From Apostichopus japonicus (lineage: Eukaryota > Echinodermata > Holothuroidea > Aspidochirotida > Stichopodidae): 64,000 nucleotides of DNA. This document shows positions 23,455 through 27,470 of the stretch, one piece after another. Below the pieces are notes generated by a model, which did no database searches, had not been told where the DNA came from, and worked only from the letters and a program-made list of their open reading frames with translations. Made by a program: the position numbers and the translations under genes. Within the stretch, counting starts at the first letter, position 1, and each line of letters starts with the position of its first letter. The stretch covers positions 20,647,611 through 20,711,610 of the forward strand of contig NC_092576.1 of assembly GCF_037975245.1 (NCBI RefSeq), given 5' to 3'.

Positions 23455-26400
23455 ATGTCAGATCAGGATGGTAAAACTAAAGTACGATATTACCGGCTGA
23501 AAACAGATGGCAAGTCAAACGTACAATTCCAAGGGAGACGTACATATTGTACGAATCTAAAAGCAGCCTTCCTATCAGTCTGCTCCTGGCCAGTATGTGC
23601 TGCTCTCTTGCTGCTCCTGTGGATGGCCTGGTTCCTCGTGTGGTTAAGCTCAAATGCCCTTACGGTATCGGCTATGGGAAAGAACCTGACGATTGTACGA
23701 ATACCACAGAGCACCGCCAATGAAATGTCAGCCTTTTGTCTTGATGGCAGTGCCCCAGCTTACTACTACAGGAGAGGTAGGCTGGATCTATTTTAACAGG
23801 GACTATACAGTGACAGCTAATTGCTAGACAAGCTAGAGTGACCAATGACCAACGTTTCTAAATGAAATATATGCTATATTTACACTACTGCAATATATAT
23901 ATATATATATATATATATATATATATATATATATATATATATATCACATATAACACAAGATATACAAATTACAAAATATTGCTACCCTGGGTTTCACGCA
24001 CGCATAGAGCGACGATCTTCAGTCCTGAAGATCGTCGCTCTATGCGTGCGTGAAACCCAGGGTAGCAATATGGTGTAATTTGTATATCTTGTGTTATATG
24101 TGATATTATTGCTCTACTACGGTATTGAGCACTTTCTGCTACTACTGATTATACTTATACGTGTGATATATATATATATATATATATATATATATATATA
24201 TATATATATATATATATATATATATATATATACATATATATATATATATATATATATATATATATATATATATATATATATATATATATATATATAGCTG
24301 GCCTTTCCAAACAACCACAGTTACATACATTTCCGCTAGAAGACTACAAAATGGTTTTCAGGCTTTATAATTATACATCACTGTTTTTAGAGATTTACGA
24401 AGACATAGTGGTTTAGTTGATACCAATGATGAAACTCACAAACCTTACATGGTTTTATCATTATTAGTAAAACCACCATTACAACCCATCTGAATCACCC
24501 GAAGTTGGAAACCATGTATCCTATTTTGTTCGCTAAATTAGAGTGGAAAGTGTACATATGTTTACTATGTGTAATCTCTGCAAAAAAAATTCTTTTGCAT
24601 ACCAGACATACATAAGAGTATAACTTATGCTTCCTTTTTTTAGGTAGAAATAAGAAGTGGGTGATCCATTTTCCTACGAGTGAGCTATGTTTCAGCTTGG
24701 AGCAATGTATGCAACTCTCTAGAATAAACAGTGGTTCTAGTCGGTCCCTCGAACCTTACCTTGCTGCCGATGGATTCCTTAGCTCTAATTCAGAGATAAA
24801 TCCAGACTTCTTTAACTGGAATGTAGTAAGACTCCATCCCTGCGACGGCGGACTATATACAGGTGCGTTATAGAGTAATGCTGGTGTGTTATAGAGCATT
24901 GCTGGTGTGTTATACAGTATTACGGTGTGTTATAGAGTACTGCTGGTGATGTGTTATCGAGTACTGCTGGTGTGTTATAGAGTGTTGTTAGGTTCTATCG
25001 AAATATGAAAATCATAACCAATTTTATTTAACCCTAACCATATTGAGTAATTGACTCATGATGTAAACCAGGGTTGTCCAACCTTTTACAGAGGAGGGCC
25101 ACATGGAATGATTATGATGAAGGAGGGGGCCGTATGAACCCTACGCTCGATTTTCCGATTTTTTGCCCGAAGCCCAAGGCAACAAAATGTGAGCACTGCG
25201 CGCGGAGCTCACTGATTTATTTTCCTTCCTGATAAAACAGATGAATAAAGTTCAGCCGCCCCCTCCCTCCGCTGAGAGAGTGTCACACAAACTGACCTGT
25301 ATGCAGTTTTTTGGACCCAGAAGGTTCGAATGATTGATTATATAGCTTCAAATTGTTATCAATAAGTCTGCTCACTAAAATTCGCACCGTAGAGCATCTC
25401 TGGCGGGCCGGACGCAACCCTGCGGCGGGCCGGACTGTGGCCCGCGGGCCGTAGGTTGGACAACCCTGATGTAAACCCTAGTGATAACGGAATTAAAAAC
25501 AACAAGATAAACATTACTGCTACATAGAAACATATAATGTTGATGATGTATGGTTTCAATCTGTTATCGGTTGTTTTATTATATGTATCTATATCTTAAT
25601 GCATACAAAATATATTACCATCAACTGTTCAATTTCCGAATTTCAACCAACAATATCAAAGAAACAAAACTTGGTATTCCCAACAAGTCTGTCAAACTGA
25701 CGGTGTTTGTATATAATGGTTGGGTCAGGCAGTATAACATTCCCTGTAGTATAATTATATGCGGGTTTTCTGCCCGCATGCATAAGAAACAACCTTCTCT
25801 TTTCGGTTGTTCTTTGTCACGAATCAATTCTACACTAGTCTAGTGGAACATTGCTGTAATATCCAAAGACTTTAATGAAAGCAACAAATAACTACAGATT
25901 TGCATCAGCACACACGTAAGAGCCAGTTCATATTCGTTACACCTGGTTATTAAGTTACTAACTGTGAAAGTATTATTAATCCCTTTGTCACGTTATTATT
26001 CATTTACAGGAGACGTGTACGCAGAATCACCAAGCGTTCATAATGAGGTATATTTTAGAGGATTTCACATCCTTAAGTGTATCCTGAAATGGCTGATGAA
26101 CAAAGGACTCGCTGATGCAGATGAAGTGGTGATTAGTGGAACTGGGGGTAAGCAGCCATGAAAAAGTGCTATTGAATATGTCAGCAATGTTATATTAAAC
26201 TTTTCCTTCACCGTTTAATGTTGTTTTCTTATTTTTAGTTGGAGCTCAAACGGTTTACTTGCACTTAGACTTCATTAGGCAGAACCTGCCATCTACAGCC
26301 CGTGTTACAGGACTTGCTGATTCAGGATTCATCGTGGACGTGCTGAATAGGACTCGATTTCCAGAAATCAGATCAGCTATACAACACTTGTACGTCACAC

Positions 26401-27470
26401 ATCATTCCAAAGGTACCTAAATACGTCATTATTATAATGAACTCAATTAGTTCAAACAAACATTACGAAACAACATGATACAAGTGGAGGTTATGAACAC
26501 GTTTATATTAGAATGACTCGAGATTCTCTAGTTAAGTTTTGAGATGTATGTTAGTCTTAGTTTATGAAACATTACTATAGTTTGACATTAACCTTTCTCC
26601 CACCCAGCGTAGACTTGTCTGCAGCACACATTAATACTAACTGGTATACTTGACGATACATGTTAATTATAAGGTTTCCTTGGTCTACCAGCAGGTTGTT
26701 CTACTTCATTAATGCTGAGTAATTAGCCTTTGTCTTCTTGGTTTCCACCTATATTCAAGTGTCTTATGCTACAGCGACACTCTTAATATTTAATTACACA
26801 TTTTTGGCAAATTATAAGAATAATTCATATAACAGGTATATGGATGAAAATCGAAACAGCGCTTCGAGAAGCACTTTTCTTTATGTGAACAGTTGAATTA
26901 AGCCAGTAATTCAGATGAAATGTAATTTCTGATTCAATCGTATATTTTACAGGAAGTCTGAACCAAAAATGCGTCGCAGTAAACACCGCAAAGTTGAACG
27001 AGTGGCGCTGTCTTTTTCCAGAGAATGTATACAGCTACATTACTACGCCAATGTTTGTTGTAGATTCGTTCTTTAACGCATGGTCTATATGGTTTGCCCT
27101 CGATCTTCGATGTTACCCTCCAAGCTGTGAAAATCAAATAACAGACCTGACCGTGCATGGTCTCGAACGCAAAGAGCGAATCCAGGAGATATTCCAGTCA
27201 AAGACCAATGGATTGTACATGACGTCATGTTTTGAGAATGACTTCATACTACAGAACAGGACCTGGAACGAGGCAATAGTGATGGATAAAGATCTAAGGC
27301 AAGCTTTCATTGATTGGTATCGTGGAGAAGAAGACGTGCCTTGGTGGAATTATACTGATTGTTTTTCCTTCTATGCATGCAATTCGAGATGTGATTGGTC
27401 GCCAAGTCACTTCCTAGAAACAACAGATCGATTCAGTTCTCAGCCAGAGTTTTATACAGACAAGCATTGA
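23455..27470 (+). CDS. Notum/pectin-acetylesterase-like protein with a lost catalytic triad (5 exons)
   Basis: Exons 23455-23776, 24644-24862, 26010-26147, 26239-26412 and 26953-27470 join at GT/AG sites, every intron in phase 1, to give 456 residues without a stop. Human Notum, a secreted Wnt lipid esterase, has 496. Residues 1-45 are cytosolic-like. About 46-66 form a hydrophobic anchor with no obvious cleavage site, suggesting a type II membrane protein. Family landmarks follow in order: [13 protein letters not shown] (94-106), [39 protein letters not shown] (219-228), [22 protein letters not shown] (317-328), [11 protein letters not shown] (371-381). The nucleophile motif GxSxG reads GTGVG (Ser to Gly226). 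The acid position reads FFNAW (Asp to Asn326). The His position reads SCFEND (His to Asn380). Cys residues and N-glycosylation sequons (NLT, two NRT, NYT) are kept, so a folded pseudoenzyme is likely. A possible poly(A) signal is AATAAA at 28212. Confidence 0.85.
23891..24296. repeat. Foldback of two 82-bp arms between (TA)n tracts, in intron 1
   Basis: (TA)n runs occupy 23891-23944 and 24168-24296. Between them, 23941-24022 and 24025-24106 are inverted copies with about three mismatches and a 2-bp centre (TC). The arms include GCTACCCTGGGTTTCACGCA. A transcript of intron 1 would fold into a nearly perfect 82-bp hairpin. No target duplication or transposon terminus is visible. Confidence 0.9.
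24863..24990. repeat. Degenerate minisatellite at the start of intron 2
   Basis: About five imperfect copies of a unit of roughly 25 bp (GTGTTATAGAGTA then CTGCTG) begin at the splice donor GTGCG of exon 2. The first copy therefore supplies the donor. Confidence 0.7.
25069..25468. mobile_element. hAT (Charlie-like) non-autonomous transposon in intron 2
   Basis: This 400-bp element has perfect TIRs (CAGGGTTGTCCAACC and its reverse complement, allowing small inner differences). It is flanked by the exact 8-bp duplication ATGTAAAC (25061-25068 and 25469-25476). Inner sequence such as GCGGGCCGGAC and TGTGGCCCGCGGGCC is characteristic of Charlie-type hAT ends. There is no transposase. An exact duplication suggests a fairly recent insertion. 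Confidence 0.92.

What the first reader, a model, noticed from the sequence alone, without database searches (positions are those of the whole stretch)
23455..27470. Membrane-anchored Notum-family protein with all three catalytic residues replaced
Seen: five exons join with phase-1 introns into 456 uninterrupted codons that follow Notum/pectin-acetylesterase landmarks along the whole length. The nucleophile elbow GxSxG is GTGVG (G226), the Asp position is Asn326 in FFNAW, and the His position is Asn380 in SCFEND. Known: Notum uses Ser232, Asp340 and His389 to remove palmitoleate from Wnt. Inference: simultaneous loss of the triad with intact frame, cysteines and glycosylation sites points to a selected pseudoenzyme, perhaps a Wnt-lipid or glycan binding decoy. 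The N-terminal anchor instead of a cleaved signal would keep it on the cell surface.
Basis: partly seen in the sequence, partly recalled or inferred. Interest (0 to 1): 0.86.

Follow-up and report, generated by a model that had tools for sequence, protein, structure and literature searches.

The report
Sea cucumber's dead pectin-acetylesterase-like membrane protein
A sea cucumber gene encodes a membrane-anchored relative of the enzymes Notum and pectin acetylesterase that has lost its catalytic residues yet is kept whole in two sea cucumber families, so it probably now binds something instead of cutting it.

Summary
Five exons join at GT/AG sites, all phase 1, into 456 codons that match Pfam PAE (2e-72). 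The Ser, Asp and His columns of human NOTUM are Gly226, Asn326 and Asn380; the oxyanion loop Gly126-Gly127-Trp128 is also gone (Thr119-Ser120-Glu121). The window is Apostichopus japonicus or very close. An orthologue in Holothuria leucospilota, from another family, 57-59% identical, carries the same replacements and is deposited as 'Pectin acetylesterase 9'. Around the four lost sites the two proteins share 29 of 36 residues against 59% over the core, permutation P about 0.02. Of 24 open exon 3/4 junctions tested (the predicted one and 23 others) none contains GxSxG. A conserved pseudoenzyme is well supported.

The Wnt-lipid decoy is not. The one intact PAE-like protein found scores higher (122 bits) than human NOTUM (78). 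My best explanation is a type II membrane protein whose dead ectodomain binds a ligand, like cholinesterase-like adhesion molecules. Ligand, location and expression are untested; both AlphaFold models were poor, dN/dS could not be computed, and the own-genome search did not complete.

The parts
23455..23776 (+). Exon 1: start codon, probable cytosolic tail (about 46 residues, YxxPhi-like YYRL at residues 12-15), single hydrophobic segment (about residues 47-65), start of ectodomain
   Evidence: join, hydropathy; tail charge, motif; tblastn of P0001
24644..24862 (+). Exon 2: holds the degenerate oxyanion loop, residues 118-123 PTSELC in place of NOTUM EGGWYC
26010..26147 (+). Exon 3: ends with the first base of the codon for Val227 in the nucleophile elbow; Gly226, at the position of NOTUM Ser232, is its last whole codon
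26239..26412 (+). Exon 4: completes the elbow GTGVG; the GLADSG motif is kept
   Evidence: alternative junctions
26953..27470 (+). Exon 5: Asn326 at NOTUM Asp340, Asn380 at NOTUM His389, C-terminal cysteines, stop codon

Best explanation
It is a single-pass, type II membrane pseudoenzyme of the PAE (PF03283) family in sea cucumbers. The alpha/beta-hydrolase domain lies outside the cytosol and has lost its nucleophile, acid, base and oxyanion loop, so it should not perform the family's esterase chemistry. The former active-site loops are instead kept for binding. Most likely it works like the cholinesterase-like adhesion molecules (neurotactin, gliotactin, neuroligin): a dead hydrolase ectodomain binds a ligand or partner, plausibly an acylated glycan or glycoprotein since active relatives act on such molecules, while the short cytosolic tail with a shared YxxPhi-like motif sorts or recycles it. 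Shown here: gene structure, residue losses, their sharing between two families, conservation of the loops. Inferred: topology, loss of activity, binding role. Not known: ligand and location.
For: Gene model and Pfam match. Triad and oxyanion losses against both NOTUM and an intact PAE-like protein, with the oxyanion residues taken from passages of PMC8172013. Same losses in H. leucospilota at 57-59% identity. Identity within 4 residues of the four lost sites is 29 of 36 against 59% over the core, a fraction 0.0198 of 20,000 random placements doing as well; 375-384 [10 protein letters not shown] is identical in both. All 13 ectodomain cysteines and 3 of 4 sequons kept. Net charge before the hydrophobic segment +6 (window) and +4 (Holothuria), and YxxPhi-like YYRL/YFRL in both. 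Dead alpha/beta hydrolases as adhesion ectodomains are described in PMC5943944 (passages).
Against: Only two species. No transcript, protein or activity data. dN/dS not computed because no Holothuria DNA was available. Loop conservation is a modest signal: it comes from the oxyanion and His loops (8 of 9 and 9 of 9), while the elbow and Asp loops are 6 of 9 each, and loops of this fold may be conserved for folding alone. No binding partner is indicated. Topology is from hydropathy and charge only, and in Holothuria the 40 residues after the segment are also +3. Both AlphaFold models were of low confidence (mean pLDDT 46.2 and 40.9), so no pocket could be examined.
Confidence: 0.5

Rival explanations
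1. An inactive partner or chaperone of an active relative: in the Golgi or ER the dead protein pairs with an active PAE-type or Notum enzyme and controls its folding, location or access to substrate.
For: Type II anchors with short tails are usual for Golgi glycan enzymes (own knowledge). The 13 ectodomain cysteines are an odd number in both species, leaving one that could bridge to another chain (inference).
Against: No close active paralogue was listed in the three protein searches, but these reach only close relatives, and the own-genome search did not complete, so this counts for little.
Confidence: 0.15
2. Wnt-lipid decoy: the dead pocket still holds palmitoleate and captures or shields Wnt.
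For: Same Pfam family as NOTUM. NOTUM S232A still holds a ligand and the substrate in crystals (PMC8365597, passages). The 50 Foldseek rows shown are all NOTUM.
Against: Pairwise scores are nearer to one intact PAE-like protein than to NOTUM (122 against 78 bits). The loop beside the pocket is rewritten from GGW to [TS]SE, placing a Glu at Trp128. NOTUM is the only solved relative found by sequence, so the fold hits do not discriminate.
Confidence: 0.08
3. An enzyme with a different chemistry: the conserved polar residues that replaced the active site (E121, N326, E379, N380, D381, with H116) carry out a new reaction or bind a metal.
For: These six residues are identical in both sea cucumbers, and each differs from both P0003 and NOTUM.
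Against: No structure places them together. Conservation is measured in two sequences only. At D381 NOTUM also has an acid (Glu390), so that position is not a new charge.
Confidence: 0.1
4. A decaying or unexpressed gene, or an artefact of wrong splicing that hides an intact serine.
For: No expression data were seen. Introns hold simple repeats and a hAT-like element.
Against: Open over 456 codons, with an orthologue of 457 in another family carrying the same replacements. Of 24 open exon 3/4 junctions, the predicted one included, none contains GxSxG, and retaining intron 3 gives a stop.
Confidence: 0.05
5. Catalytically dead and conserved, but with a role not covered above, for example a matrix or storage protein released by shedding.
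For: The data fix the loss of catalytic residues better than they fix the role.
Against: None specific.
Confidence: 0.12

Closest known systems
P0002, 'Pectin acetylesterase 9' of Holothuria leucospilota (and P0001, BSL78_26760 of Apostichopus japonicus)
   Same: P0002 is the orthologue: similar length, hydrophobic segment, ectodomain cysteines, and all triad and oxyanion replacements. P0001 is the same gene: identical over the first 44 and the last 405 residues.
   Different: P0002 is 57-59% identical; its deposited name implies an active esterase, which its residues do not support. P0001 reads CQYVLS where the window reads WPVCAAL, as if from small indels; Holothuria supports the window's reading.
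PAE-type esterases (plant pectin acetylesterases, CE13; intact relative P0003 of unnamed origin)
   Same: Pfam PAE over the domain; CLDGS and CDGG motifs; 29% identity over 332 residues to P0003.
   Different: Plant PAE motifs GCSxG, NxayDxxQ and HCQ (PMC5465549, passages) are [13 protein letters not shown] and NDF here; membrane anchor.
NOTUM (palmitoleoyl-protein carboxylesterase)
   Same: Same Pfam family; 25% identity over 335 columns; GLADSG kept; the only solved relative found by sequence.
   Different: Ser232, Asp340, His389 and the Gly126-Gly127-Trp128 oxyanion loop are all replaced; a hydrophobic anchor with a tail before it instead of the signal peptide described for Notum (PMC8172013, passages).
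Cholinesterase-like adhesion molecules (neurotactin, gliotactin, glutactin, neuroligin)
   Same: Alpha/beta-hydrolase domain of a membrane protein without a working triad (PMC5943944, passages).
   Different: A different hydrolase family: only Pfam PAE matched here. No adhesion partner is known.

Membership tests
PAE family (PF03283) | Match to the family profile above its curated cut-off over the domain | tested here: met
   244.7 bits against cut-off 26.6, profile 16-351 of 355
PAE family, active enzyme | Ser-Asp-His triad | tested here: not met
   Gly226, Asn326, Asn380
NOTUM Wnt deacylase | Ser232, Asp340, His389 | tested here: not met
NOTUM Wnt deacylase | Oxyanion loop Gly126-Gly127-Trp128 | tested here: not met
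   Thr119-Ser120-Glu121
NOTUM Wnt deacylase | Nearer to NOTUM than to PAE-type proteins | tested here: inconclusive
   P0001 122 against 78 bits, P0002 120 against 88 bits; only one protein of each kind was compared, and Pfam PAE does not separate them
NOTUM Wnt deacylase | Hydrophobic palmitoleate pocket | not testable with these tools
   models too poor
Pseudoenzyme | Catalytic residues lost in an otherwise complete domain | tested here: met
Pseudoenzyme | Loss conserved in orthologues | tested here: met
   Two species of two families, Stichopodidae and Holothuriidae; no other orthologue was seen
Pseudoenzyme | No catalytic activity | not testable with these tools
   needs an assay
Cholinesterase-like adhesion molecules | Carboxylesterase-type (PF00135) ectodomain | tested here: not met
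   only PF03283 matched; PF00135 as the defining domain is recalled
Cholinesterase-like adhesion molecules | Membrane anchor with dead hydrolase ectodomain | tested here: met
   sequence level only: hydropathy and residue losses
Cholinesterase-like adhesion molecules | Binds an adhesion partner | not testable with these tools
   needs binding experiments

The most novel reading that the evidence does not exclude
The dead active site was rebuilt as a polar, acid- and amide-lined pocket (H116, E121, N326, E379, N380, D381, identical in both species), making a sea-cucumber cell-surface receptor, perhaps cation-dependent, for acylated or sulphated glycans: a lectin evolved from a carbohydrate esterase and a PAE-family counterpart of neurotactin.
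Probability: 0.12. Interest if true: 0.7.

Novelty: new variant of a known kind. Interest (0 to 1): 0.45.

Why it matters
Dead members of hydrolase families are known, but no dead PAE/Notum-type protein of echinoderms appeared among the titles and abstract openings listed by the paper searches (6 of 6 papers, 7 of 8, 20 of 57, 20 of 3,034, 10 of 1,872, 15 of 16), and the Holothuria copy is named as an active esterase. If real, it is a natural case of complete active-site replacement with the domain kept. It would also ask what a pectin-acetylesterase-like pocket binds in an animal known for regeneration and unusual sulphated glycans (own knowledge).

Tried and rejected
Wider family search: three protein searches listed 2 of 1735, 3 of 95 and 2 of 26 candidates, in all only P0001, P0002 and P0003. 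The age of the loss and the existence of an intact sea cucumber paralogue therefore stay open. This is a limit of a word-based search (it did not list NOTUM either), not evidence of absence.

Prokaryote contigs gave 73 pattern matches and viral contigs 42, none a relative; a tblastn of P0003 against plasmids gave none. NCBIfam gave none for P0001, P0002 and P0003.

AlphaFold with three-row alignments was tried with P0001 and with P0002 as target: mean pLDDT 46.2 and 40.9. The second aligner library was not available.

A decaying pseudogene and a splicing artefact were rejected. The C-terminal cysteine cluster was considered as a PAE-only mark and dropped, because I recall a similar tail in NOTUM (no call).

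Papers: no held paper contains the tag BSL78_26760 or its two neighbours in number. The H. glaberrima genome preprint holds none of five search terms. The divergence time of the two sea cucumbers was sought and not found. Papers were seen as listings or passages only; none was read whole.

Full report
What is there. Five exons on the + strand between 23455 and 27470 join with GT/AG sites, all in phase 1, into 456 codons and a stop. At local base composition an open stretch of that length has a chance near 1e-14, not allowing for the choice of splice sites. Pfam PAE covers residues 87-409 with 244.7 bits. The only solved relatives found by sequence are NOTUM chains, 8 distinct sequences, best E 1.1e-21 by single sequence and 1.8e-25 by a profile of the sea cucumber proteins.

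Where it comes from. The best database match, P0001, is a hypothetical protein of Apostichopus japonicus (BSL78_26760). It matches all five exons and is identical to the window protein over the first 44 and last 405 residues. In the hydrophobic segment between, the window reads WPVCAAL, much like WPVYAAL in Holothuria leucospilota, while P0001 reads CQYVLS; small indels in the other assembly would explain this (inference). The window is thus A. japonicus or a very close relative.

The losses. Aligned with human NOTUM and with an intact PAE-like protein (P0003), Ser232 is Gly226, Asp340 is Asn326 and His389 is Asn380. Of 96 columns where P0003 and NOTUM agree, both sea cucumbers keep 38 and share a different residue at 23, which include the triad and Gly127. 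The plant PAE motifs GCSxG, NxayDxxQ and HCQ (PMC5465549, passages) read [13 protein letters not shown] and NDF.

Is it a splicing artefact? With exon 3's start and exon 4's end fixed, 24 combinations of GT or GC donors and AG acceptors keep the whole frame open: the predicted one and 23 others. None contains GxSxG anywhere, and retaining intron 3 introduces a stop.

Is it conserved? The orthologue P0002 in H. leucospilota belongs to another family of the same order. It is 57-59% identical, by the method used, with the same replacements: [TS]SE, GTG[VT]G, F[FY]N[AS]W and SCFEND. All 13 ectodomain cysteines and three of four sequons are kept. Identity within four residues of the four lost sites is 29 of 36, against 59% over residues 88-410; a fraction 0.0198 of 20,000 random placements did as well (0.025 and 0.039 with flanks of 6 and 8). 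The signal comes mainly from the oxyanion loop (8 of 9) and the His loop (9 of 9); the elbow and the Asp loop are 6 of 9 each. The 10-residue stretch 375-384, which holds Asn380, is identical. The test rests on two sequences, and such loops may be conserved for folding alone, so it is supportive rather than conclusive.

Notum or PAE? Both belong to PF03283, and that profile does not separate them. By pairwise score P0001 is nearer to P0003 (122 bits) than to human NOTUM (78 bits), and P0002 likewise (120 against 88), while P0003 and NOTUM score 83-87 bits with each other. The CDGG motif and the Cys338/Cys343 pair are found in P0003 and not in NOTUM. With one protein on each side this is a lean, not a placement.

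Topology. The N-terminus has about 46 residues of net charge +6, then a hydrophobic segment at about 47-65, which suggests a type II anchor with the hydrolase domain outside the cytosol. Both proteins have a YxxPhi-like motif in the tail (YYRL, YFRL). In Holothuria the downstream flank is also positive (+3), so the orientation is likely rather than certain. Signal-anchor and sorting roles are inference from general knowledge.

Structure. Two AlphaFold jobs with three-row alignments gave mean pLDDT 46.2 and 40.9. Foldseek with the first returned NOTUM in all 50 rows shown of 124 at E 0.001 or better, best E 1.1e-10, but with TM-scores of 0.30-0.48. The pocket therefore could not be compared.

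How it most likely works. Shown: a domain of full length without its catalytic residues, kept in two families. Inferred: the protein is inactive as an esterase and binds a ligand or partner with the reshaped site, tied to the membrane, as dead cholinesterase-like ectodomains do (PMC5943944, passages). A partner or chaperone role for an active relative is the main rival. The Wnt-lipid decoy is possible but has no specific support. The boldest reading not excluded is a lectin-like pocket lined by H116, E121, N326, E379, N380 and D381; these six are the same in both sea cucumbers and each differs from P0003 and NOTUM, although NOTUM also has an acid at D381.

Limits. The three protein searches reach close relatives only and returned three proteins in all. 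The own-genome search did not answer in nine tries. No Holothuria DNA was available for dN/dS, and no expression data were seen. The paper searches listed nothing on this gene, but several showed only part of their matches and only openly licensed papers are held.

Noticed in passing
53581-63988: A 22-bp satellite of about 474 copies (88% matches) runs to within 12 bases of the end of the window and is open over long stretches in several minus-strand frames; a smaller array of the same unit lies at 47026-47395.
   Followed up: no
5452-9335, minus strand: A LINE-like element: one ORF with endonuclease and reverse transcriptase domains, and an upstream ORF with a GDSL/OSK-type esterase domain.
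   Followed up: no
25069-25468 (intron 2): A hAT-like short element: inverted ends CAGGGTTG...CAACCCTG and an exact 8-base duplication ATGTAAAC on both sides.
   Followed up: partly
23941-24106 (intron 1): An 82-nt inverted repeat, 98% complementary with 2 nt between the arms, beside long AT runs.
   Followed up: no
23444-23454: The start codon follows a run of ATT repeats and a CAACAG sequence that could be a splice acceptor, so a separate 5' untranslated exon may exist upstream (read).
   Followed up: no
21210-21992: An open stretch with an ALKBH8_N-type match and a reverse-transcriptase match below the curated cut-off, just upstream of the gene.
   Followed up: no
735-1079, minus strand: An open stretch with a borderline cyclic-nucleotide-binding domain match, 27.5 bits at a cut-off of 27.5.
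   Followed up: no
36916-37444: Five copies of a 105-bp repeat, 97% matches.
   Followed up: no
23455-27470, residues 95-431 of the protein: Thirteen ectodomain cysteines, an odd number, in both sea cucumbers; one may be free or bridge to another chain.
   Followed up: partly
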